DNA from: an uncultured Chlorobiaceae bacterium
GTDB taxonomy: Bacteria > Bacteroidota > Chlorobiia > Chlorobiales > Chlorobiaceae
DNA length: 64,000 nt
Assembly: GCA_903839405.1 (NCBI GenBank)
Contig: CAIMCD010000035.1
Coordinates: 1 to 64,000, forward strand
Reading direction: 5' to 3'
Made by a program: the position numbers and the translations under genes. A model generated the notes under the pieces. That model was not told the DNA's origin, searched no databases, and saw nothing but the letters and a program-made list of their open reading frames with translations. Position 1 is the stretch's first letter; each line of letters starts with the position of its first letter. Below, one piece after another: positions 16,792 to 63,755 of the stretch.

Positions 16792-17058
16792 CTATTGCTC
16801 TCCAAACCCCTGCTCAAAAAACTCCACAAGCTGGCGAGAGGCCTCTACAGCATCCTCTCCATTAAGCTTGAGCGTCAGGCGGGTACCTTTCGGTGCCGCA
16901 AGACTCATAACGCCGATAATGGACTTCGCATTGATTTCAACGCCCTCCATCTCGATAAAAAAATCGGACTTAAAGCGGGAGGCAAGCTTGACCACCGCGG
17001 CGGCAGGCCTGGTATGCAAACCGGCCTTGTTTTTAACGATCACTTCCTGAACAATCAC
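16792..17058 (-). CDS. ptsH: Phosphocarrier protein HPr
   Basis: HPr relays phosphate from PEP and enzyme I to EIIA proteins. The 88-residue product has the active-site histidine at residue 15 (KAGLHTRPAA) and Ser46 in the NAKSIIGVMSL block, the site phosphorylated by HPr kinase. The start is GTG at 17058 with GAGG seven bases upstream. It lies downstream of obg and the GNAT gene. No enzyme I or sugar-specific EII permease is in the window, so a regulatory role is likely; the EIIA-like domain on the KdpD-like protein is one conceivable partner. Confidence 0.93.
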   Translation of the reverse strand: MIVQEVIVKNKAGLHTRPAAAVVKLASRFKSDFFIEMEGVEINAKSIIGVMSLAAPKGTRLTLKLNGEDAVEASRQLVEFFEQGFGEQ

Positions 17059-50416: not shown

Positions 50417-50859
50417 AACTGCTCGTTGCTATCGACCTCTCGGAACAATCCCGAAAAATCATCGACGAAGCCCAAAAGCTTGCCAAACGCCTGCAGGCAA
50501 CGGTCGTGCTGCTCCATGTCATTGCGCCCGCCTCACCCGCCATTGAGCTGCCATCAGATGAAGAGATAGTGCATTTGCCGGATATAGAGCCGGATGATGA
50601 GGGAGGCCGAGAGTCGATACAACTGCAGAGCTTGGCAAAACAACTGCAGGAAGATGGGATCGAGACCTCCGTCGCCATCGTGCACCATGAGGAGGCTCTG
50701 GCAATTATCGGTGAAAGTGAGAAACAGCAGGCTGACCTGATCATGCTTGGTTCCCACGGACACGGGGCGCTCTTCCATCTGCTTGTCGGCAGCGTTTCTG
50801 AAGGGGTTATCCGGCGCTCCACCTGCCCGGTCATTATTGTGCCGTTAAAGAGGCCTTGA
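50413..50859 (+). CDS. Universal stress protein, UspA family
   Basis: The 148-residue protein has the UspA fold: MKLLVAIDLSEQSRKIIDEA at the N-terminus and the ATP-binding motif G-2x-G-9x-G(S/T) at GSHGHGALFHLLVGS, followed by VIRRSTCPVIIV. It is therefore the ATP-binding type. It overlaps the upstream 28-codon ORF by four bases and the metal ABC permease gene by 26 bases tail to tail. Its role is general stress or metabolic adaptation; no specific signal is apparent. Confidence 0.92.
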   Translation: MKLLVAIDLSEQSRKIIDEAQKLAKRLQATVVLLHVIAPASPAIELPSDEEIVHLPDIEPDDEGGRESIQLQSLAKQLQEDGIETSVAIVHHEEALAIIGESEKQQADLIMLGSHGHGALFHLLVGSVSEGVIRRSTCPVIIVPLKRP

Positions 50860-51655
50860 CAAAGCGCACCAGATGCACCAGAAAAAAGACAAGGCCCGAA
50901 ACAACAATAATCGTGGCTCCGGAGGCAAGATCAAAGAGGCAGGAGAGCCAGAGCCCCGAGAGGCTGAAGAGAGCTGAAAGCACCACCGAAAGCACCATCA
51001 TACCCGGCAGGGTACGGCTGAAGAGGCGGGCAATGGCCGCAGGAATGGTCAGGAGAGCGATCACCATCACAATGCCCACAACCCGCATCATGATCACAAC
51101 GGTCAGGGCAATCAAGCAGAGCAGCAGCAGGTAGAGGAGGGTGGTCTTCACGCCCGAAACAAGCGCATACTCCTCGTCAAACGAAAGGGCCAGAAACTCC
51201 TTGCTGAGCAGCCAGACCACGAGCACAATCACCAGATCCAGCAACACAATCATCCAAAGATCCGAGGTCGGTACGGTCAGGATATTGCCAAAGAGATAGC
51301 TGAAGAGGTCAGGAGCATAGCCGGGTTTAAGTCCGATAAAAATAACCCCGACGGCCATGCCGATCGCCCAGAAGGTGCCGATGGCGGTATCTTCTGCCAC
51401 ATTGCCCTTTTTACTCAAGAGGCCGATACCAAGTGCCGCAAGAAGCGAGAAAGGAATAACGCCAAGGAGTGGATTGATGCCGAGGTAGTAGCCAAGCCCG
51501 ATGCCGCCAAATGCGGTATGAGCGATACCGCCGCTGATAAAGCCAATCCTCTTGACCACAACATAGGTGCCGATAATGCCGCAAGCTACGCTGGAAAGCA
51601 GCGCGGCAAGCAGCGCATTACGCATAAAATCGAAAGCAAAAATCTCGGGAAACAT
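50834..51655 (-). CDS. Metal ABC transporter permease (ZnuB/MntB family)
   Basis: The 273-residue protein has about eight membrane helices and matches the ABC-3 family of zinc/manganese permeases: NALLAALLSSVACGIIGTYVVVKRIGFISGGIAHTAFGGIGLGY is characteristic, as is MMRVVGIVMVIALLTIPAAIARLFS. It is the last gene of the fur-like/znuA-C-B operon. Its end overlaps the end of the convergent uspA gene. The metal (Zn, Mn or Fe) is not certain; the Fur-family regulator in the operon suggests Zn. Confidence 0.9.
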   Translation of the reverse strand: MFPEIFAFDFMRNALLAALLSSVACGIIGTYVVVKRIGFISGGIAHTAFGGIGLGYYLGINPLLGVIPFSLLAALGIGLLSKKGNVAEDTAIGTFWAIGMAVGVIFIGLKPGYAPDLFSYLFGNILTVPTSDLWMIVLLDLVIVLVVWLLSKEFLALSFDEEYALVSGVKTTLLYLLLLCLIALTVVIMMRVVGIVMVIALLTIPAAIARLFSRTLPGMMVLSVVLSALFSLSGLWLSCLFDLASGATIIVVSGLVFFLVHLVRFVKASLTAQ

Positions 51656-51682
51656 GGCATTACCTTTCGGGTTTGGTTCGAT

Positions 51683-52387
51683 TTACAAGGAGTTTGGAAA
51701 CAAAGCTCCCTCCGGCCGATAAACCGAAGAGAGATCGTGGCGCTCCAGCGTGACATTCAGCTCAACAATGCTCTCGACATAACGACTTATGGTTGAGGTA
51801 TCGTGGCTGACCAGAATAATGGTGAGCTTTTTTTTCAGCCGCTCCAGCAGATCGTAGATCGAGCTTTTCATTTGGGGATCAATGCTGGCCGTTGGTTCAT
51901 CGAGCAGCAGCAACTCCGGCTCTCCGGCAAGAGCGCGGGCAATGAGGGCCCGCTGCAGCTCCCCTCCGGAGAGCGAACCGATACGGTGCTCGCTGAGTCG
52001 CTCCAGACCGGCGAGCTGCATCGCCTCATCACTTTTCTGGCGATCAAGCGGGTTATAGTGCTGAAACAGTTTTTTTTTCGATAGCCGACCCATCATCACC
52101 AGGTCGCGCACGCTGATGGGAAACTCCCGGTCAAAAAACAACCGTTGCGGTACATAGCCAATACGCCCCGGTGAACGGCCCGGCGGCAAGCCAAAAACAC
52201 GCACGCTGCCCGACGAAGGGCTCTGAAGCCCCAGAATTGTCCGAAGAAAGGTTGTCTTGCCTCCGCCATTAGGACCGATGATGCCTAAAAAATCCCCCTC
52301 CAAAACCTGCAGTGTCACCCCCTCAAGCACCTTCATACCACCAAGGGTGACTGAAAGCTGCTCACATTGAACAAGTACACTCTTCAT
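51683..52387 (-). CDS. Metal ABC transporter ATP-binding protein (ZnuC-like)
   Basis: The 234-residue ATPase has Walker A GPNGGGKTTFLR, the signature LSGGELQRALIARAL and Walker B LLLLDEPTASID, with the H-loop in LVSHD. It is a short single-domain ATPase of the zinc/manganese ABC family. Its ATG overlaps the substrate-binding gene stop as ATGA, and the permease gene follows 27 bases later. With these it forms a complete importer. Confidence 0.92.
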   Translation of the reverse strand: MKSVLVQCEQLSVTLGGMKVLEGVTLQVLEGDFLGIIGPNGGGKTTFLRTILGLQSPSSGSVRVFGLPPGRSPGRIGYVPQRLFFDREFPISVRDLVMMGRLSKKKLFQHYNPLDRQKSDEAMQLAGLERLSEHRIGSLSGGELQRALIARALAGEPELLLLDEPTASIDPQMKSSIYDLLERLKKKLTIILVSHDTSTISRYVESIVELNVTLERHDLSSVYRPEGALFPNSL

Positions 52388-53265
52388 TGCATGGATTCAA
52401 GAAAGGTTGAAGTTGCACGCCGGAGATTGTGTTGATAATCGGAAGCCAGCGGATCGACACTCCGGGTTATACCGCCGATCTCCCTTGCAATAGCCTCGGC
52501 CTGGGAGGCATTGAACTGGGGCGAGAGCAGCACCACCCGGATGTGGTTTGTTTGGGCTTTTTCAATCACCCGCTGCATTTGCTTGGGGGTGAGCGTCTTG
52601 CCCTCCTCTTCGGCCGCAATTTGTTCGAGAGCGTAGGCATGGGCATAATATCCCCATGCCGGATGGAACACCAGAAATCGACGGTTCTTCAACGGAGCAA
52701 GCTTTGAGCGAATCTCCCGGTCAAGCGCCTGCAGCTCGGCCACAAGCGCTCCAGCGTTCGCCCGGTACTCCTCCTGGTGCTGCGGGTCAACCGCCACAAG
52801 CGCCGCTTCAACGTTGCGTGCAATAATAATACCGTTCAGCGGAGAGAGCCAGTAGTGCGGATCATAACGACCGTGATGAAGGGCATCCTCTTCATCTTTC
52901 ATGGGAAGCAGAGTGATATGCTCAACCCCGTTACACACCTTCAGGGCGGGGTTAAGCGATAAAAAGCGCTGCATCCAGTTAAGCTCAAACTCCACCCCGG
53001 AGCCCGCCTTGATAAAGAGAGCTGCATCGGCAAGCCGCGCCATCTGCCGGGGCCTGGGTTCATAACTATGCGGGTTTCCGCCCGGCGGCACCATCACGGA
53101 GAGGGCCACCCTCCTGCCACCAATCCGTTCGGCAAAGTAAGAGAGCGGTGCAATCGAGGCAACAACCTGCAGCTTATGCGTCTGCCTCTCCTCGGTGCAT
53201 CCGCAAAAGAAAAAAAGCAGCAAGAGAAGCTGAACCCTGAAAAGCCGCGAGAGAGTCTTGTTCAT
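52384..53265 (-). CDS. Metal ABC transporter substrate-binding lipoprotein (ZnuA-like)
   Basis: The 293-residue protein has a lipoprotein signal (MNKTLSRLFRVQLLLLLFFF followed by C-G-C), and a cluster A-I binding-protein fold with VVASIAPLSYFAERIGG, PPGGNPHSYEPRPRQMARL and HPAWGYYAHAYALEQIA, whose histidines likely coordinate the metal. The long histidine-rich loop of E. coli ZnuA is absent, and only short HH motifs occur (LHHGRYDPHYWLSP). The start overlaps the stop of the Fur-family gene as ATGA. Zinc or manganese is plausible. Confidence 0.9.
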   Translation of the reverse strand: MNKTLSRLFRVQLLLLLFFFCGCTEERQTHKLQVVASIAPLSYFAERIGGRRVALSVMVPPGGNPHSYEPRPRQMARLADAALFIKAGSGVEFELNWMQRFLSLNPALKVCNGVEHITLLPMKDEEDALHHGRYDPHYWLSPLNGIIIARNVEAALVAVDPQHQEEYRANAGALVAELQALDREIRSKLAPLKNRRFLVFHPAWGYYAHAYALEQIAAEEEGKTLTPKQMQRVIEKAQTNHIRVVLLSPQFNASQAEAIAREIGGITRSVDPLASDYQHNLRRATSTFLESMQ

Positions 53266-53699
53266 CCTGAACCCTCCGACTCCTTGACGGCACAGGGAGC
53301 GCAAACTCCGCGGAGCTGCACCAGATGCCCGACAAGCCGAAAACCATCAATCATCATCCCCTCCTGATACAAGCACTCCTCCACCTGGCCGACCCGGCCG
53401 CATGAAATACAGATGATGTGATGATGGTGGTGCTCTTCGTGGTGCGGTTGAGAGCAAAGCGCATAGCGCCGTTCACGGCCAAAGCCGGCAACCCGGAAGA
53501 GCACACCGCAATCCGCCAGCGCTTCCAGGTTGCGGTAGACCCCCGGAAGTCCGCAGCGAGGAAACTCTGCTTTCAGCCGTTCATGCAGTTCAACCGGTGC
53601 AAGCGGCCCGGAGGAGAGGGAAAAATGGGCAATCATCGCCCGACGACGCGGAGTTAGCTTCAGTCCGGCATCCTTGATCAAAGAGTGAGCTTCCATCAT
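53262..53699 (-). CDS. Fur-family metal-responsive regulator (Zur-like)
   Basis: The 145-residue protein has the winged helix of Fur proteins (GLKLTPRRRAMIAHFSLSSGPLAPVELHERL, LPGVYRNLEALADCGVLFRV) and a histidine-rich metal site HHEEHHHHHIICISCG with two CxxC pairs (CISCG and CAPC) for structural zinc. Its place as the first gene in front of a metal ABC importer suggests it represses this operon when the metal is replete; Zur is the likely type. No clear Fur/Zur box is seen upstream. Confidence 0.85.
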   Translation of the reverse strand: MMEAHSLIKDAGLKLTPRRRAMIAHFSLSSGPLAPVELHERLKAEFPRCGLPGVYRNLEALADCGVLFRVAGFGRERRYALCSQPHHEEHHHHHIICISCGRVGQVEECLYQEGMMIDGFRLVGHLVQLRGVCAPCAVKESEGSG

Positions 53700-55798: not shown

Positions 55799-56929
55799 TT
55801 ACGGCGCCGTCAAGGCACCAACTTCACCGAGAATGCTCATAAGCGGCGTTCCGGCAAGATGATCGGAAAAGGTAATGCCTTCAAGGCGAAGCTGCTCAAG
55901 AATGCCATAAGCCGTCTGGATCGCCGCTTTTTCAGATCCACAGAGAAACGGGCCGGGGCTATTGTAGTCGCCGGTTGCAAAAAAGTTTGTACATCCGCAC
56001 CAGTTCATGCAATACGCGCTGAGCGTGCAGCTCTGGCAGGCATCATTAGCCGTCGACTGGGCGTCATGATTGCACCTTCTAAGCGTGGCAATGCCTTGTG
56101 TGACGTTACCCAGACAGTGAACACTGCCATCATCCCCGCCAATAAGCCGTTCACAGGGATAGACATTTCCGGAAGGAGCAAAAGCAAACTCCCCCTTGCC
56201 CATCCGGCATTTCTCCATTACGTGATAGCCGTTGCGGAGTATCACCACAATCTTGCTGTCGATGAGGCTGATATGGCGTGGTTCGCCAGCCCGGTAAAAC
56301 TCCATGTACTTTTGGCCAATAGCACCGTAGAGCCGAGGAAGCTGCAGCAGATCCGGCTCACTCCATCGTGCTGAAATATCGGGGTTCAAATAGATGTTCC
56401 TGACGCCGAGTCCGGCAAGGTAATCAACTGTTTCCGGCAGAAAACACAAGGTCTCAGGCCGATAGACGGCATTGATCGGCATAAACGGAAAAAAACGCAA
56501 TGCATGACGAATATTTGCTTCAACAACTCCGGAACTGCCGCGGCCATCCGCAAAAACCCTTGAAGCATCCTGAACCGCTGGAGCACCGTCACAGCTTATG
56601 CCGAGCGTAATCTGAAGTTGCTGAAGCTCCGTGGCCAGCTCATCCGAAAAAATGGTGCCGTTCGTGACAACAGAAAAGAGCACGGGATGACTCTTGTAGA
56701 GCGGGTGACGGGTAACCATGCCGACAATGCTTTTAAGCAGCTCAAACTCAAGCAAGGGCTCGCCCCCGAAAAAGCCGATATCGATCAGCTCCCCCGGCGG
56801 AGTATGCTGAAAAATGAATGCAACAATGGAGGCCGCCGTCTCGCGACTCATAACAGCCTCGGCCTTCGTGATGTAGCAATAGCGGCAAGCAAGATTGCAC
56901 TGCTGGGTAAGGGCAAGGGTATATTTCAT
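55799..56929 (-). CDS. Radical SAM/SPASM domain protein
   Basis: The 376-residue protein has the radical SAM motif LTQQCNLACRYCYITKAE (CxxxCxxC), GFFGGEPLLEF and TNGTIF, then a C-terminal SPASM domain with a cysteine set in KCRMGKGEFAFAPSGNVYPC and ACQSCTLSAYCMNWCGC for extra Fe-S clusters. Such enzymes modify peptides or proteins. I use the ATG at 56929; a TTG at 56953 is also open. A 132-residue protein of unknown family is encoded just upstream and may be its substrate or partner. Confidence 0.85.
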   Translation of the reverse strand: MKYTLALTQQCNLACRYCYITKAEAVMSRETAASIVAFIFQHTPPGELIDIGFFGGEPLLEFELLKSIVGMVTRHPLYKSHPVLFSVVTNGTIFSDELATELQQLQITLGISCDGAPAVQDASRVFADGRGSSGVVEANIRHALRFFPFMPINAVYRPETLCFLPETVDYLAGLGVRNIYLNPDISARWSEPDLLQLPRLYGAIGQKYMEFYRAGEPRHISLIDSKIVVILRNGYHVMEKCRMGKGEFAFAPSGNVYPCERLIGGDDGSVHCLGNVTQGIATLRRCNHDAQSTANDACQSCTLSAYCMNWCGCTNFFATGDYNSPGPFLCGSEKAAIQTAYGILEQLRLEGITFSDHLAGTPLMSILGEVGALTAP

Positions 56930-56988
56930 GGACAGCAATAAATAATCGTTCAATGGAGGCGTGAAGGTACGCCTCCATTGTCAGATGT

Positions 56989-57387
56989 TCACAGATGACC
57001 CAATGCGCTGAACGATTCGCCGATTTCCATAAAGTGTTCAAAGCCAATCGTATTGGCGCTGGCTATCTTTTGGCTGAACTCCTTCAAAAGCGGAGCTGAA
57101 AAGGCGTTCCACTGTTTTGCATCAAGAATGTAGAGTTCGCCCCTGTAATGCAGATGGGGGGTTCTGCGACCTCCCCGGATATTGAGGATGTAATCGACGG
57201 TGATGGCTTGTTTGCCTCCGGCAACAAGCGATGCCGCAATAGGATGGGCATCAACCCGCAATGCCTCGTGTGTAACGGGTTGCAACTTGTTTGCCTTGAT
57301 GAAGGCAGCAATCAACTGTTCTTTTTGCACCCAGAAATCCGCAGGGATTCCACCGCCAAATCTTCCCGGAAAGAGTGTTTTTGCCAT
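56989..57387 (-). CDS. Hypothetical protein paired with the radical SAM gene
   Basis: The 132-residue protein is not recognised. It starts MAKTLFPGRFGGGIPADFWV, has a basic central part IRGGRRTPHLHYRGELYILD and ends HFMEIGESFSALGHL. It has GGAG seven bases before the ATG. It lies 35-59 bases upstream of the radical SAM/SPASM gene on the same strand. It lacks the usual leader/core shape of a RiPP precursor and a signal peptide. It may be the target protein or an accessory of the enzyme. Confidence 0.6.
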   Translation of the reverse strand: MAKTLFPGRFGGGIPADFWVQKEQLIAAFIKANKLQPVTHEALRVDAHPIAASLVAGGKQAITVDYILNIRGGRRTPHLHYRGELYILDAKQWNAFSAPLLKEFSQKIASANTIGFEHFMEIGESFSALGHL

Positions 57388-57643: not shown

Positions 57644-59338
57644 CTACCCCAACCGGTCGGCCTGGCGCCTTAAGAGCCGCAGGATCTCTTTCTGGTTTTT
57701 GGCTCCAAGCATCATACTCCGCCACTGGGTGTCGGAAGCAAGTTTACTGATAGCTCCCAGGAGGCGGATATGACTGTTCGGATCGGAAAGCGGGGAGAGC
57801 ATCAAAAAGATGATCCGCGCGGTTTTGCTGGACTCCCGGTCGTAAATACCAATCTTGCTGACACCGACGGCAAGAAGCGGTTTTTTCAGATGCTCAAGTC
57901 GTGCATGAGGGATGGCGATCTCCTCGCCAACAAAGGTGCTACCCTGCTTCTCCCGTTCAAGCAGACTTTGCAGTGCGCTTGCTTCCTCAATGTCCAAATT
58001 TGCCTTGCAACACTCCTGAAGAAGCTGCAAGATGGCCTCTTCTTTTTCCAGAACACTCTCCCACAAGAGCACCCGCGCACCTCGCAGCGGCTCTTTCCAT
58101 GCCTCCGGAAGCTGGTTGCCAACCCGGATACTCTCCCTGAGGCCGGCAAAATATTGCGCAGGGGTTTTTGTGGCCTCAACAACACCACTTTCGGCCCTGG
58201 TGTCGAGCACAATCACGCTGATGGAGCGGCACTCGCTGATCAACCGTTCAACCACGGTTTGCTGACCCCGGATGCGCTGCCACCACGGTAGTTTTCGGCC
58301 GGAATTGCCAATAATAATGTGACCGACCCGGTACTCCCTCGCAAACTGCAGAATGGTTTTAACCACATCGTCACCCTTGTAGGTAAAGACCGTCGCCCCG
58401 AGCTGCTGGGCAAGAACAAGCGTATTGGAGAGCATGCGCTGTACTTTGGCATCAATATTGGCCGGGCTGTCCGAGAGGGTTTGCACATAGACCGCATACC
58501 AGTTCCGGTTGAGCCGTCCGGCTATACGCGAAGCATAGCGCAGAATGGCTTCACAGTTCTGCGTTTTTGAACTGAGGCAGACCATCAACTGATCAGGATT
58601 GGATAAAGAGTCATCATGAAACTGGTTTCGCCGCTTCGCATCAAGCTGTGCTGCCAGCTCCCTCAAGGTTAGCTCACGAAGCTGCTCAAGGTTTTCAGGC
58701 CTGAAAAAGTTGGAGAGGGCCGCTTCCCGCCGATCCGGAACATAGACCTTTCCCTCCACAAGTCGCTGACGCAGGTCGTCGGTTGTAATATCAACATTGA
58801 CCAGTTGATCGGCCAGCCCCAGAATCCGATCGGGCACCCGCTCCTTGACCTTTACGCCGGTTGCTTGTTCTACCGTTTCATAAAGGCTTTCGATATGCTG
58901 GATGTTCAGGGTTGAAATAACATGAATGCCGGCCGCAAGAATCTCCTCAACATCTTCATAGCGCTTGCTGTTCCGGCTTCCGGGCACATTGGTATGCGCA
59001 AGTTCGTCAACCAGCACCACCGCCGGACGACGCTGGAGAATGGCATCAATATCCATCTCGGTAATTTCAATATCACGGTAATGCAGGCTTTTTCGTGCCA
59101 GGATTTCAAGGCCCGAGAGCAGAGCCTCGGTCTCCTTTCGTTTATGGGTCTCGACAAGGCCGACAACAACATCAATGCCACTCTCCTGCAAGCGTTTTGC
59201 TTCCTGCAGCATCTGCCATGTTTTACCAACTCCGGCAGAGTAGCCCAGATAGATTTTGAGTTTGCCCTGTTGCGACTGCTGAATCAGACGCAAAAAACTG
59301 TCGGCCCTGTTGCTCTCCATAGCGTTCTTGGAATTCAA
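57644..59338 (-). CDS. kdpD: KdpD-like sensor fused to a PTS EIIA domain, no histidine kinase
   Basis: The 564-residue protein has the KdpD N-terminal domain (Walker A GYSAGVGKT at 32-40, VVLVDELAHTNVPG near 107-120), a universal-stress-like domain (about 250-380, MVCLSSKTQNCEAILRYASR) and then, in place of the membrane sensor and histidine kinase, a domain resembling PTS EIIA of the fructose/nitrogen type with GEEIAIPHARLEH; His478 is the expected phosphorylation site. It sits at the end of the kdpFABC operon, 15 bases after kdpC. No kdpE is in the window. It could sense potassium or phosphotransfer state without phosphorelay to KdpE. Confidence 0.88.
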   Translation of the reverse strand: MNSKNAMESNRADSFLRLIQQSQQGKLKIYLGYSAGVGKTWQMLQEAKRLQESGIDVVVGLVETHKRKETEALLSGLEILARKSLHYRDIEITEMDIDAILQRRPAVVLVDELAHTNVPGSRNSKRYEDVEEILAAGIHVISTLNIQHIESLYETVEQATGVKVKERVPDRILGLADQLVNVDITTDDLRQRLVEGKVYVPDRREAALSNFFRPENLEQLRELTLRELAAQLDAKRRNQFHDDSLSNPDQLMVCLSSKTQNCEAILRYASRIAGRLNRNWYAVYVQTLSDSPANIDAKVQRMLSNTLVLAQQLGATVFTYKGDDVVKTILQFAREYRVGHIIIGNSGRKLPWWQRIRGQQTVVERLISECRSISVIVLDTRAESGVVEATKTPAQYFAGLRESIRVGNQLPEAWKEPLRGARVLLWESVLEKEEAILQLLQECCKANLDIEEASALQSLLEREKQGSTFVGEEIAIPHARLEHLKKPLLAVGVSKIGIYDRESSKTARIIFLMLSPLSDPNSHIRLLGAISKLASDTQWRSMMLGAKNQKEILRLLRRQADRLG

Positions 59339-59353: not shown

Positions 59354-59941
59354 TTACTTTGGCAATCGGTCAAGCGACCGGTTGAGTTGCAAAACATTAA
59401 CAAGCGACTCATGCACGAGCGGAATGGTTGTTTTTCCGTTTGCCGGATTATCAAGCACCGCCATAACCTGATCCAGAGAGAGGCCCCTTGCTCGCGCCAC
59501 TCTCGCGGCCTGAAATCTGGCCGCAGCAAGAGAGATGTGAGGATCAAGCCCACTGCCCGAAGCTGTAACAAGATCAGTTGGAAGATCTTCACCTTTTTTC
59601 AGCGCAAATGCCGCAAGCAGTTTTTCACTCCTCTTGCGGAGCGCAAGTGAAGCGGGCGAGAGATTGCTCCCTCCGGCTCCTGCGGCGTTCCAGGAGGCGG
59701 CCGAAGGACGCGACCAGAAATATTTTGGCTGGGTAAATTGCTGGGCAATCAGCTCACTACCAACCACCACTCCTTTATCCGAACGGAGAAGAGAGCCTGA
59801 TGAGGAGTAGGGTGCAAGCTGAGCAGCAAGAAGAACAAGTAAGGTATAGAACCCGCTACAGACGATGACGCTCAATGGAAGCAGACGGAGTGAGACACCA
59901 AATTGCCGGGTGAGCTGCGAGAGTGATAGCGTTGTTTGCAT
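59354..59941 (-). CDS. kdpC: Potassium-transporting ATPase subunit C
   Basis: KdpC stabilises the KdpFABC complex and raises ATP affinity. The 195-residue product has one N-terminal helix (LRLLPLSVIVCSGFYTLLVLLAA) and a periplasmic domain with SELIAQQFTQPKYFWSRPSA, DLVTASGSGLDPHISLAAARFQAARVARAR, the family hallmarks, and a short C-terminus. It lies 18 bases after kdpB and 15 bases before the KdpD-like gene in one operon. Length is normal. Confidence 0.94.
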   Translation of the reverse strand: MQTTLSLSQLTRQFGVSLRLLPLSVIVCSGFYTLLVLLAAQLAPYSSSGSLLRSDKGVVVGSELIAQQFTQPKYFWSRPSAASWNAAGAGGSNLSPASLALRKRSEKLLAAFALKKGEDLPTDLVTASGSGLDPHISLAAARFQAARVARARGLSLDQVMAVLDNPANGKTTIPLVHESLVNVLQLNRSLDRLPK

Positions 59942-59959: not shown

Positions 59960-62044
59960 TTATACAAGACCGGTCAAGGCAATAAGCATGTCAATCAGTT
60001 TGATGCCGATGAAGGGCACCATAACTCCACCGACGCCGTAGATAATCAGATTTTTTCGAAGCATGGCATCGGCTCCCATTGGACGGTATTTAACCCCTTT
60101 CAGCGCAACCGGAATCAAGAGCGGAATAATGATGGCATTAAAAATCAACGACGACAGAATGGCACTTTCCGGCGTTGCAAGATGCATGATGTTCAGCACA
60201 GCAAGTCCCGGTATGGCAAGCACAAACATGGCCGGAATAATGGCAAAATACTTGGCGACATCGTTTGCAATAGAGAAGGTGGTCAAAGCACCACGCGTCA
60301 TGAGCAACTGTTTGCCAATCTCGATGATCTCAATCAGTTTGGTTGGATCACTGTCGAGATCAACCATATTGCCCGCCTCCTTGGCCGCCTGGGTGCCGGA
60401 GTTCATGGCCACACCGATATCGGCCTGTGCAAGCGCCGGCGCGTCATTGGTACCATCTCCCATCATCGCAAGCAGTCGTCCGCCCTGCTGCTCTTTTCTG
60501 ATATAGGCCAGTTTATCCTCAGGACGCGCTTCAGCAATATAATCATCAACGCCGGCCTCCCGGGCAATGGCTGCTGCCGTCAGCGGGTTGTCGCCCGTCA
60601 CCATGACCACACGCAAGCCCATGGCACGAAGCCGCGCAAAACGGTCCGAGATGGCGGGCTTGAGTATGTCCGACAGTGCAACAACGCCAAGAAGTTCACT
60701 TCCTTCTGCTACCACAATGGGCGTCATCCCTTTGCGCGCAACATCATCAACCACACCCTGCAAGCTCTCAGGAATATTGCCCCCAAGTTTTGCAATATAG
60801 TGTACCAGCGCATCCGAAGCCCCTTTGCGCAAACACTTCCCATCCGGCAAATCAATGCCGCTCATGCGTGATTGCGCCGCAAAAGGCACTACTTTTCCAT
60901 CACTCTCACCGGTAGCCTTGATACCAAGCAGTTGTTCCGCCAAGGTAATAATGGATTTTCCTTCCGGCGTCAGGTCGCCGAATGAAGCCTTCATGGCCAC
61001 CGATGCCAAACGCTCCCTCGAAATACCAGGTAACGGGAGATAATCCGTGGCCTGACGGTTACCCATCGTGATCGTGCCGGTTTTATCGAGCAGCAGGGTA
61101 TCAATATCACCGGCCAGTTCTACGGCTTTGCCGCTCTTTGCCAGCACATTGGCCGAAAGTGCCCGATCCATACCGGCAAGCCCTATGGCCGAAAGTAGGG
61201 CGCCGATAGTGGTTGGAATAAGGCAGACAAGCAGAGCCACAAGTGTTGGCACCGGAAGGGTGATCCCAAAATATTTTCCAATGGGCCAAAGCGTACCGGT
61301 TACGAGTAAAAAGGCCAGGGTAAGTCCGGCAAGCGTTACCGTCAACGCCAGTTCATTTGGTGTTTTCTGGCGAACTGCTCCTTCAACAAGAGCAATCATT
61401 TTATCCAGAAAAGAGTGACCGGCTGAAACGGAAATACGCACCACAATACGATCCGAAAGGACTCTTGTGCCCCCAACAACACCGGAGCGGTCACCGCCAG
61501 CCTCTCGCACAACCGGGGCCGACTCTCCGGTAATTGCGGATTCATCAACCATTGCCGCCCCTTCGATCACCTCGCCATCTCCGGGAATGGTTTCACCGGT
61601 TAAAACAATAATTTGGTCGCCTTCACGGAGAGCATCAGAACTGACCATCTCCTCGCGGCCATCCTTGACCTTTCGGGCCAGAGTATTCTGTCGTGTCCGT
61701 TTGAGACTGTCCGTCTGCGCCTTGCCCCGGGCTTCCGCCAAAGCTTCGGCAAAGTTTGAAAACATCACCGTAAGCCACAAAATGATCATAACGGCAACCG
61801 TATAAATTTGGTGCGGAGCGCCGGAAAATGCATTCAAAAGAGCAATAAGCGTTGTCAGCACCGCGCCTGCTTCGGTAACAAACATAACCGGATTTTTCAC
61901 CATTGCCCTCGGATCAAGCATCCCGAGTGAACGGCCAAGGGCTCCCAGAACCTGCTGTTTATTAAAAATTGAGGCCGTTCTCGTCTGACGCCGCTCAATT
62001 TTGGCAGACTCAGGACTACCGGGTAAGGAATCAGTGTGCATCAT
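59960..62044 (-). CDS. kdpB: Potassium-transporting ATPase subunit B
   Basis: KdpB is the P-type ATPase subunit. The product from the ATG at 62044 is about 694 residues. It shows the phosphorylation motif [16 protein letters not shown] in [31 protein letters not shown] and [16 protein letters not shown], the hallmarks of KdpB. An upstream TTG (62080) keeps the frame open but lies next to the kdpA stop. Seven or so membrane helices are predicted. It is full length and probably active. Confidence 0.94.
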
Positions 62045-62084
62045 GATGGTTATTAATTGATTCTTTCGATGAATTGTCAATCGC

Positions 62085-63755
62085 TCAATGCATGACGGCT
62101 GTAAGATGATCGGCTACAGGGCCGAGTACCGCGACCGGCAGAAAAAGCAGTGCCCCAATAAAGACCACACTCCCGAGAATAATGAGCCCAAAAAGCAGGG
62201 TGTCGGTGCGAAGCGTGCCGGCGGTTACCGGCACCGGTTTTTTGGCAGAGAGGGAACCGGCAATGGCAAGCGGCAGAATGATCGGGATATAGCGCCCGAG
62301 CAGCATCACCAGACCAGTAGCAATGTTCCAGGGAGCGGTGTTGTCGCCCAATCCCTCAAAACCTGAACCATTGTTCGCCGCGGCCGAAGTAAATTCGTAG
62401 AGAATCTCAGTAAACCCGTGAGCCCCGGTGTTGAGCACGGTAGCCGCGCCTAAAGGTGTGGCGGCAAAGAGGGCCGTTCCACCGAGAATCAGTGCAGGAT
62501 GAACCAATAGCGCAAGCAGCGCCAGCGTCATCTCCGGGGTTTCAACCTTTCTGCCAAAATATTCCGGTGTACGACCAACCATCATGCCGCAGATAAAAAC
62601 ACCGACAATGATAAAAATAAACATGTTGATCAAACCAACCCCAACACCACCAAAAACAACATTCATCCACATCCCGGCAAGCGGCACAAGGCCGGTGAGG
62701 GGATTGAGGCTGTCGTGCATGCAGTTGACCGAACCATTGCTGGTCGCCGTCGTTACGGCCGCCCAAAGCGCGCCGGCACCGGAACCAAAGCGCAGCTCCT
62801 TGCCTTCAAGATTTGAAGCCAGCTCAACCGGAAGTCCTGAAAGTGCGGCTGCGGGATAACCTTCAAGCCAAACTGCCGCACCTGCTTTCAACACAAGCAG
62901 CGCCATCATGACGGCAAAAATCACGGCAGCATCGCGCATTCGTCCTGTTATGCGACCAAACATCCAGACCGCAGCCATGGGAATCAAAACAATACTCATG
63001 CACTCCAGCATATTGGTCAAGAAGGAGGGGTTCTCGAAAGGATGGGTGGAATTCGGACCGAAAAATCCACCCCCGTTGGTTCCGAGCTGCTTGATGGCCT
63101 CCATCGCCGCAACCGGCCCGCGGGCTATGGTTTGCGTTGCACCTTCAAGCGTATGGGCTACAGCCGCGCCATCCATGGTCATCGGAACACCTCCGGCAAG
63201 CAGCAGAAGGGCCACCAGGAGAGCTAGCGGCAAGAGCACAAAAAAAGCCGTCCGCATCAGGTCAAGGTAAAAATTACCCACGGTTTTTTTCCCGCCGAGC
63301 GCTCTCGCAAGCGCAACAAGAGCAGCAATCCCGGTAGCAGCGGAAACAAACTGCAGCCACATCAATCCAAAGAGCTGGGAGAAATAGCTCATCGATACCT
63401 CGCCGGAGTAGTGCTGGAGGTTGGTATTCGTTACAAACGAGGCTACCGTATTAAAGATAAGGCTAAGCTCAAGCGGGCCTTTCCCATCGGGATTCAGCGG
63501 CAGGGAGTGCTGCATGGCAAGGATGATGGCCACAAAAGCAAACATGAGCACATTGAAGACCATCATGGAAACGAGATAGCTCTTCCACCCCTGCTCTTCA
63601 AGAGCACCCTCGCCCCCTATTTTGCTGAAAAAACGTGAGGTCAAGCGACCATAACCCGAGGTCTCGGCCGGGTCAATCAGTCGGGCCATAGCCTGCCCGA
63701 GAGGCCAGGAGAGCAGGGCCGGCAGAAGCAGTACCAACACAACAAGCAGCAACAT
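62085..63755 (-). CDS. kdpA: Potassium-transporting ATPase subunit A
   Basis: KdpA is the channel-like subunit that binds potassium. The 556-residue product has about ten helices and the selectivity-filter-like motifs [33 protein letters not shown] and [14 protein letters not shown], and [15 protein letters not shown], each with the expected glycines. The GGGFFG loop is the family's potassium site. It follows kdpF by 12 bases and precedes kdpB. Length matches the family. Confidence 0.95.

What the first reader, a model, noticed from the sequence alone, without database searches (positions are those of the whole stretch)
57644..59338. KdpD variant that ends in a PTS EIIA domain instead of a histidine kinase
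The KdpD and USP-like regions are intact, but the membrane sensor and kinase core are absent and a fructose/nitrogen-type EIIA-like domain with its histidine (residue 478) follows. This would couple K+ transport to HPr-type phosphotransfer rather than to a KdpE phosphorelay. The window also carries an HPr with both His15 and Ser46.
Basis: partly seen in the sequence, partly recalled or inferred. Interest (0 to 1): 0.75.

Follow-up and report, generated by a model that had tools for sequence, protein, structure and literature searches.

The report
KdpD serine-kinase module fused to EIIA
A gene beside the potassium-pump genes of a green sulfur bacterium joins the part of the sensor KdpD that is a serine kinase in E. 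coli to a PTS EIIA domain with an intact phosphorylation-site histidine, so the cell's PEP-driven phosphate relay would likely help set how much potassium the cell takes up.

Summary
The minus-strand gene 57644-59338 (probable ATG start 59320, 558 aa) encodes KdpD + Usp + PTS EIIA with no membrane segment and no histidine-kinase core, right after kdpABC. R462, H478 and H523 align with the EIIANtr active site; enzyme I, HPr, HPr kinase and a separate PtsN are also encoded in the genome.

It is a conserved architecture: 44 of 86 Chlorobiaceae genomes carry it, and database relatives bear Desulfobacterota, Kapabacteria, Elusimicrobiota and Hydrogenedentota names.

HPr transfer "rather than" a two-component relay is not supported: a HAMP histidine kinase, an NtrC-type regulator and a KimA-like permease lie just upstream, past the window edge.

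Best reading: the KdpD domain, with the serine-kinase residues of E. coli KdpD intact, is likely the kinase that inhibits KdpB, and EIIA its likely input, in a genome where no c-di-AMP cyclase was found. Not explained by that alone: 13 of 49 loci hold KimA and no kdpABC, and one clade of these has lost a serine-kinase residue but kept the EIIA ones; EIIA may also act on the histidine kinase or KimA. No step has been tested at the bench.

The parts
57644..59338 (-). KdpD-Usp-EIIA fusion gene (564 aa from TTG 59338; probably 558 aa from ATG 59320)
   Evidence: model
58646..59269 (-). KdpD domain (residues 24-231), the domain that is an atypical serine kinase in E. coli KdpD
   Evidence: PF02702 E 9.9e-93; PDB 2r8r by fold; aligned with E. 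coli K-12 KdpD; function from PMC11018627
59219..59245 (-). Walker A G32-X5-G38-K39-T40
   Evidence: G32, G38, K39, T40 in 45 of 45 Chlorobiaceae fusions aligned, in the 2 checked later and in 6 of 6 from other lineages
59003..59008 (-). Walker B D111-E112 (E. coli D109/E110)
   Evidence: 51 of 51 fusions and 2 more; aligned with E. coli; catalytic role from PMC11018627
58193..58591 (-). Usp domain (residues 250-382)
   Evidence: weak Usp match; fold match to 7ji4
58079..58192 (-). variable linker (residues 383-420)
   Evidence: mean identity 0.28, median dN/dS 0.52 among Chlorobiaceae; pLDDT below 50 over 384-410
57668..58072 (-). PTS EIIA domain (residues 423-557)
   Evidence: PF00359; fold match to PtsN structures
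57953..57955 (-). R462 = E. coli PtsN R57
   Evidence: alignment to 1A6J; 54 of 54
57905..57907 (-). H478 = E. coli PtsN H73, predicted phosphorylation site
   Evidence: 54 of 54; 319 of 320 database proteins
57770..57772 (-). H523 = E. coli PtsN H120
   Evidence: 52 of 54; replaced, mostly by Q, in the group found with the Syntrophaceae query
59354..59941 (-). kdpC
   Evidence: named from its place after kdpB and from similarity to KdpC-placed genes, not scanned with Pfam
59960..62080 (-). kdpB, 60% identical to E. coli KdpB
61520..61522 (-). KdpB S187 (frame numbering), which aligns with E. coli KdpB S162 in the TGES motif; predicted target serine
62085..63755 (-). kdpA
   Evidence: PF03814 E 8.4e-214
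16792..17058 (-). HPr with H15 and S46, candidate phosphate donor
   Evidence: PF00381 E 5.2e-27; residues

Best explanation
The gene encodes a KdpD-Usp-EIIA protein without a histidine-kinase core or membrane segment, lying directly downstream of kdpABC, and it most likely works as a serine kinase that inhibits the Kdp potassium pump and whose activity would be set by phosphorylation of its EIIA domain. Steps: (1) enzyme I and HPr would pass phosphate from PEP to H478 (inferred from conserved residues and the presence of the partners). (2) The phosphorylation state of EIIA would change the activity or reach of the KdpD domain in the same chain (inferred; the direction is not known). (3) The KdpD domain would phosphorylate KdpB S187, the equivalent of E. 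coli S162, and shut the pump (shown for E. coli KdpD, and for Deinococcus geothermalis KdpD acting on E. coli KdpB, in PMC11018627; here inferred from the intact Walker A, Walker B, W41 and R192). (4) Transcription of the pump is likely left to the separate histidine kinase and NtrC-type regulator encoded upstream. In short, this would be a third kind of input to the Kdp serine kinase, beside the K+-sensing domains of E. coli and c-di-AMP in Deinococcus.
For: Serine-kinase residues complete in the window protein by direct alignment with E. coli K-12 KdpD: Walker A, W39 = W41, D109/E110 = D111/E112, R190 = R192, and the target serine and its glutamate are present in KdpB. EIIA catalytic residues complete; EIIA under purifying selection (median dN/dS 0.155 against 0.524 for the linker). 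Gene directly downstream of kdpC; 35 of 36 Chlorobiaceae genomes with kdpA carry the fusion, partial copies at contig ends counted. EI, HPr, HprK and PtsN present. The other known inputs look absent or weakened: no TM/GAF part, no diadenylate cyclase match in the genome, no riboswitch match in the 19 kb that hold the upstream operon, one of five c-di-AMP motif residues changed (second Ser to K258, by eye). In a clade with KimA but no kdpABC beside the fusion the adenine-site aromatic becomes Leu in 7 of 7, against aromatic in 33 of 33 pump-linked copies; with divergence matched, those copies break more of the otherwise invariant KdpD columns (median 0.114 against 0.071; six copies) while EIIA does not differ (0.120 against 0.143).
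Against: 13 of 49 fusion loci have no kdpABC, and 8 genomes with the fusion have no kdpA match and no kdp genes beside it, so KdpB cannot be the only target. Walker A/B stay intact even there. The extra change in the KdpD domain of the pump-less clade is modest: its range (0.098-0.141) overlaps that of pump-linked copies (0.027-0.112), six other pump-less copies keep W41, and four of the seven Leu-clade genomes (G005, G051, G083, G088) still hold kdpA elsewhere with a second fusion. Fusions found with the Syntrophaceae query lack the second EIIA histidine (0 of 119). No phosphate transfer, kinase activity or coupling between the domains has been measured. The absence of a cyclase rests on one genome estimated 94.9% complete.
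Confidence: 0.45

Rival explanations
1. The EIIA end works like PtsN in other bacteria: depending on its phosphorylation it would bind the separate HAMP histidine kinase (or KimA) and so adjust expression or activity of whichever K+ importer the operon holds. The KdpD part would be an anchor or a second sensor.
For: The histidine kinase lies upstream on the same strand in 40 of 41 loci not cut by a contig end, and the regulator in 36 of the 38 that reach that far (in L073 by a partial 40% match), whereas kdpA (29 of all 49, cut ones included) and KimA (20 of 49) come and go. The pump-less label needs at least 4 changes on well-supported branches. Three genomes keep a free EIIA of the fusion type. 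In E. coli PtsN binds the KdpD HisKA region, in S. fredii its GAF domain (PMC9239096, passages).
Against: RR-KimA-HK operons occur with no fusion at all (G006, G030, G031), so the pair does not need it. This role does not explain the conserved serine-kinase residues or why 35 of 36 kdpA genomes have the fusion.
Confidence: 0.3
2. The KdpD-Usp part does the work as an ordinary short KdpD, and EIIA is a structural or docking domain whose histidine is not phosphorylated in the cell.
For: Non-fused KdpD-Usp proteins lie downstream of kdpABC in G019, G254, G298 and G334, in two of them with one gene between. The linker is long and variable. The second histidine is missing in one large group.
Against: H478 is kept in 319 of 320 database proteins and R462 in 318 of 320, with 2 K. 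EIIA stays under purifying selection in pump-less copies too (median dN/dS 0.124 in the Leu clade).
Confidence: 0.12
3. One reading: HPr phosphotransfer replaces the two-component control of kdp.
For: No histidine kinase core in this chain; PTS partners present.
Against: A histidine kinase and a regulator with a sigma-54 interaction domain are encoded in the same gene run, and rpoN is present.
Confidence: 0.04
4. It is a sugar-PTS component, as the public name 'PTS sugar transporter subunit IIA' says.
For: NCBI names for several members.
Against: KdpD domain; kdp genes or KimA beside it in 46 of 49 loci, the other three being too short to judge; the fructose EIIA model scores 54 bits against a cut-off of 103.5. 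I did not search for EIIB/EIIC partners.
Confidence: 0.03

Closest known systems
Short KdpD (KdpD-Usp) of Deinococcus geothermalis, an atypical serine kinase stimulated by c-di-AMP (PMC11018627)
   Same: KdpD and Usp domains without TM/GAF or histidine kinase; same kinase domain by Pfam family
   Different: Not described as having an EIIA domain; its input is c-di-AMP, for which no cyclase was found in this genome. I did not align its sequence
E. coli KdpD, tandem serine-histidine kinase
   Same: [quoted passage not shown] kinase residues identical by alignment
   Different: E. coli has TM/GAF domains and a HisKA-HATPase core; the window protein has neither
EIIANtr (PtsN) acting on KdpD in E. 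coli, P. putida and rhizobia (PMC13104625, PMC9239096; passages)
   Same: EIIA of the same Pfam family linked to Kdp control; R57/H73/H120 equivalents present
   Different: There EIIA is a free protein that binds the histidine-kinase or GAF region; here it is joined to the KdpD-Usp part, and the genome has a separate PtsN as well
NF038185 KdpD_non_kinase
   Same: 350 bits over residues 12-377
   Different: Below the curated cut-off of 550 and has no EIIA part
KimA potassium permease (PDB 6S3K)
   Same: The upstream permease aligns over residues 36-491, E 3.3e-63
   Different: It sits in a gene run with a histidine kinase and an NtrC-type regulator; PMC11018627 describes the Bacillus subtilis protein as c-di-AMP controlled, and no cyclase was found here

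Membership tests
KdpD histidine kinase | N-terminal KdpD domain | tested here: met
   PF02702 309.8 bits, cut-off 26.1
KdpD histidine kinase | TM/GAF sensor and HisKA-HATPase core | tested here: not met
   no such Pfam match, no hydrophobic segment; NF007793 371.7 of 1123 bits
KdpD atypical serine kinase | Walker A G-X5-GKT, Walker B DE, aromatic/Arg adenine pair | tested here: met
   G32-X5-GKT, D111/E112, W41/R192, aligned with E. coli KdpD
KdpD atypical serine kinase | phosphorylates the KdpB TGES serine | not testable with these tools
   the serine is present in the window's KdpB; activity needs an assay
PTS EIIA, fructose/nitrogen class | PF00359 domain and fold | tested here: met
   81.7 bits, cut-off 27; Foldseek to 3urr/1a6j
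PTS EIIA, fructose/nitrogen class | active-site Arg and two His | tested here: met
   R462, H478, H523 align to R57, H73, H120 of 1A6J
PTS EIIA, fructose/nitrogen class | accepts phosphate from HPr | not testable with these tools
   partners present in the genome
EIIANtr/PtsN equivalog | TIGR01419 curated cut-off | tested here: not met
   53.2 of 138.7 bits; a separate PtsN-like gene exists
c-di-AMP-binding KdpD Usp | motif (A/G/C)XSXSX2N(Y/F) | tested here: inconclusive
   C254, S256 and N261 kept, second Ser replaced by K258 in the window protein; Tyr position judged by eye

The most novel reading that the evidence does not exclude
A widespread third class of potassium-uptake control: a serine kinase for a transport ATPase whose input is a fused PTS phosphorylation domain, tying K+ uptake directly to the PEP supply in bacteria without c-di-AMP; where the Kdp pump was repeatedly lost the same protein was turned to a new partner in KimA operons, and in some genomes its EIIA half lives on alone.
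Probability: 0.35. Interest if true: 0.82.

Novelty: new variant of a known kind. Interest (0 to 1): 0.62.

Why it matters
PMC11018627 showed that KdpD carries a serine kinase, that a short KdpD is driven by c-di-AMP, and that the majority, not all, of species with short KdpD have the cyclase. A covalent EIIA domain is a concrete candidate for another input and makes the question testable with a handful of purified proteins. It would join two literatures, PtsN control of K+ and KdpD serine-kinase control of KdpB, in one chain. The proteins carry database names such as sugar PTS subunit or sensor histidine kinase, and neither fits.

Tried and rejected
Sigma-54 promoters: a consensus scan upstream of RR, KimA, HK, kdpA, kdpB and the fusion, against shuffles of single bases, gave no match to all 12 positions; the only excess was upstream of HK (4 of 42 at 10 of 12, about 1 expected), three of the four being one site in close relatives. 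I claim no direct sigma-54 control of kdp. c-di-AMP riboswitch: the only Rfam match in the 19 kb L064 is a tRNA. The first structure model (18 close sequences) was poor in the KdpD part (mean pLDDT 61) and was replaced by the 62-sequence model. Chance or assembly artefact: rejected. Fusion limited to Chlorobiaceae: my first view, rejected. Target is the Kdp pump alone: rejected. A first column count made the KdpD domain of the pump-less clade look far more changed than in pump-linked copies (9-13 of 92 against 0-4 of 92-97), but that clade is also more divergent and breaks 3-5 of 25 EIIA columns too; the divergence-matched count is what I rely on. In one search I meant to include ten PtsN sequences from loci L001-L010, but only three plus the window genome's own were picked up; the place of the free EIIAs in that tree is weakly supported and I draw no origin from it.

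Literature: full-text searches for KdpD with EIIA (20 of 32 papers listed), Chlorobi/PTS (2 of 2), PtsN/truncated KdpD (20 of 422), EIIA domain/fused (20 of 97), PtsN/domain architecture/fusion (15 of 44), KimA/c-di-AMP (8 of 26), Chlorobium (1 of 1) and atypical serine kinase (1 of 1) showed no title or abstract start that describes a KdpD-EIIA fusion; most of these papers I did not open. PMC11018627: abstract, section 8, section 9 part 1 and passages; word-start searches for EIIA, IIA, PTS, PtsN and Chlorobi found nothing in its main text; its supplements were not available to me. PMC13104625, PMC9239096 and PMC8214093: passages only.

Rows dropped before counts: of 49 Chlorobiaceae fusion loci, 45 entered the alignment; L087 and L110 were missed by my script's Walker-motif filter and were checked later (all the residues named here present, L110 with Leu at 41); L115 and L116 are cut by contig ends. 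In one search, 320 of 361 proteins (500-620 aa) were aligned. One search ended with 'more matches are not listed'; my counts are of listed rows.

Full report
What is there. It carries PF02702 (KdpD) at residues 24-231 and PF00359 (PTS EIIA 2) at 423-557, both well above their cut-offs, with a weak Usp match between. There is no HisKA, HATPase or membrane segment. A 62-sequence AlphaFold2 model is confident outside the N-terminus and the linker at 384-410 (mean pLDDT 87.4), and its three parts match the solved KdpD N-domain (2r8r), the KdpD Usp domain with c-di-AMP (7ji4) and PtsN (3urr, 1a6j). pTM is 0.57, so the relative placing of the domains is not settled.

EIIA active site. Against 1A6J the alignment puts R462, H478 and H523 on R57, H73 and H120. 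Among 54 aligned sequences (45 Chlorobiaceae fusions, 6 fusions from other lineages, 3 free EIIA proteins) R462 and H478 are kept in 54 of 54 and H523 in 52 of 54; two further Chlorobiaceae copies keep all three. Among 320 database proteins H478 is kept in 319; H523 is kept in 119 of 119 of the Chlorobiaceae-query group and 82 of 82 of the Kapabacteria-type group but in 0 of 119 of the group gathered with the Syntrophaceae query, which mostly has Q. Median dN/dS is 0.078 for the KdpD domain, 0.084 for Usp, 0.155 for EIIA and 0.524 for the linker: EIIA is maintained.

Partners in the genome. The genome (2.57 Mb, 46 contigs, 94.9% complete) has one KdpD domain, this one; one kdpA; enzyme I, by its N-terminal domain on a 604-codon frame; HPr in the window and a second, more divergent HPr-like gene; HPr kinase; a separate 162-aa PtsN-like EIIA; and rpoN. 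It has no match to the diadenylate cyclase family.

Operon. Past the window edge, on the same strand, the gene order is NtrC-type response regulator, KimA-like permease (6S3K, E 3.3e-63), HAMP-HisKA-HATPase histidine kinase, then kdpA, kdpB, kdpC and the fusion. Co-transcription is inferred from order and strand; gaps of 161, 71 and 221 bp separate the first four genes. PMC11018627 (section 9) names other bacteria in which the KdpD chain sits downstream of the pump and a separate two-component system controls expression.

Spread. In 98 genomes of the class, 44 of 86 genomes of the window's family (taken as Chlorobiaceae from record names) carry at least one fusion, counting two cut by contig ends, and 0 of 12 genomes of other families do. 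The relative G019 has a regulator, kdpABC, a 378-aa KdpD without EIIA and a histidine kinase. In 394 genomes drawn from the phylum, the only KdpD match outside the class that runs on into EIIA is G221 (Pfam). A genome-contig scan with the EIIA alignment gave fusions in two Hydrogenedentota and three deltaproteobacterial MAGs, four of the five with kdpC upstream (one gene between in L174); in L173 the contig begins too close to tell. Of the 120 listed best hits, both domains are present in 120, 82 (with Kapabacteria, Bacteroidota and Elusimicrobiota names) and 119 (with Syntrophales and Desulfobacterota names). These are capped lists from about 8000 scored candidates each, and many source genomes are MAGs.

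Neighbourhoods. Of 49 fusion loci in the family, 8 are cut before the histidine kinase could be seen; 40 of the other 41 have the histidine kinase upstream on the same strand, and in L071 it lies downstream in the adjoining KimA module. The regulator is present in 36 of the 38 loci that reach that far (absent in L074 and L111; in L073 a partial 40% match). KdpA is upstream in 29 of 49, KimA in 20 of 49. Thirteen of 49 have KimA and the histidine kinase but no kdpABC. 35 of 36 family genomes with kdpA carry the fusion; the exception, G061, is in 450 contigs. Nine fusion genomes have no kdpA match; G028 has kdpB and kdpC at a contig end, leaving eight, of which four are at least 98% complete (G064, G074, G076, G078). 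On the tree the pump-less label needs at least 4 changes on well-supported branches. In L075 kdpA and part of kdpB are seen but no kdpC match, with the fusion open; this could be an assembly fault. Against a strict dependence, RR-KimA-HK operons exist in genomes without any fusion (G006, G030, G031).

What the kinase part says. PMC11018627 reports that the E. coli KdpD domain alone phosphorylates KdpB S162 and inhibits the pump, and names Walker A G36/K37/T38, W39, D109/E110 and R190 (passages). Aligned with E. coli K-12 KdpD, the window protein has all of them: G38/K39/T40, W41, D111/E112, R192, and its KdpB has the S162 and E161 equivalents. In fusions linked to kdpABC, residue 41 is aromatic in 33 of 33; in one clade of pump-less copies it is Leu in 7 of 7, while the six other pump-less copies keep W. 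With the reference set matched for divergence, the Leu clade (six copies) breaks a median 0.114 of otherwise invariant KdpD columns (0.098-0.141) against 0.071 (0.027-0.112) in pump-linked copies, and 0.127 against 0.048 in Usp, but 0.120 against 0.143 in EIIA; the five other pump-less copies tested show no such excess. Within-clade dN/dS points the same way: Usp 0.177 against 0.072, KdpD 0.098 against 0.071, EIIA 0.124 against 0.144. I read this as modest evidence that the KdpD-Usp half is tied to the pump and that EIIA has a role that outlives it. Four of the seven Leu-clade genomes still hold kdpA elsewhere with a second fusion. Three genomes (G007, G047, G058) also hold a free EIIA of the fusion type (216-227 aa frames, 52-56% identical), the domain confirmed by Pfam in G007's copy.

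Mechanism. I commit to a PTS-gated serine kinase on the pump as the main role in the window's organism (0.45), with EIIA acting on the histidine kinase or KimA as the chief rival (0.30); both may be true. Shown: domains, residues, partners, contexts, conservation. Inferred: phosphorylation of H478, coupling between domains, KdpB as substrate, direction of the effect. The c-di-AMP input looks weakened (no cyclase found; one of five motif residues changed, by eye), not excluded.

Novelty. The parts are known and the architecture is present in protein databases under names that do not fit. My literature searches (listings only) showed no description of it. I rate it a new variant of a known kind.

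Noticed in passing
L064 3978-9483 (genome contig C35, just past the window end): KimA-like potassium permease in one gene run with a HAMP histidine kinase and an NtrC-type regulator; KimA beside a two-component pair may be a variant in its own right.
   Followed up: partly
G000:C5:61859-62104 (L203 5845-6111, minus): Second, divergent HPr-like protein that keeps a His in a GLH context, next to a gene that looks like a response regulator and close to a cysK-like gene (both names from recall, not scanned); in G007, G047 and G058 the free EIIA lies near a very similar cysK-like gene.
   Followed up: no
window 55799-57387, minus: Radical SAM protein (best NCBIfam match PapB type, 188 bits, cut-off 340) next to a 132-aa protein with no Pfam or NCBIfam match at the thresholds used; possibly a peptide-modifying pair.
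   Followed up: no
L120 9133-11166 and L121 8601-10634: 677-aa KdpD-Usp-DUF4118 proteins after kdpABC with no histidine-kinase match; in L121 an 882-aa KdpD follows, in L120 a 510-aa gene that I did not scan. Another way of splitting KdpD.
   Followed up: partly
L119 9138-10802: Deeply diverged KdpD-EIIA fusion (39% in KdpD, 28% in EIIA) of the Kapabacteria type beside kdpABC; may be an independent fusion.
   Followed up: partly
L075 7283-9077 (G012): Only part of kdpB and no kdpC match between kdpA and an open fusion gene: a pump in decay or an assembly fault.
   Followed up: no
window 50834-53699, minus: By look a zinc-type ABC uptake cluster with a Fur-family regulator; named from recall, not scanned.
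   Followed up: no
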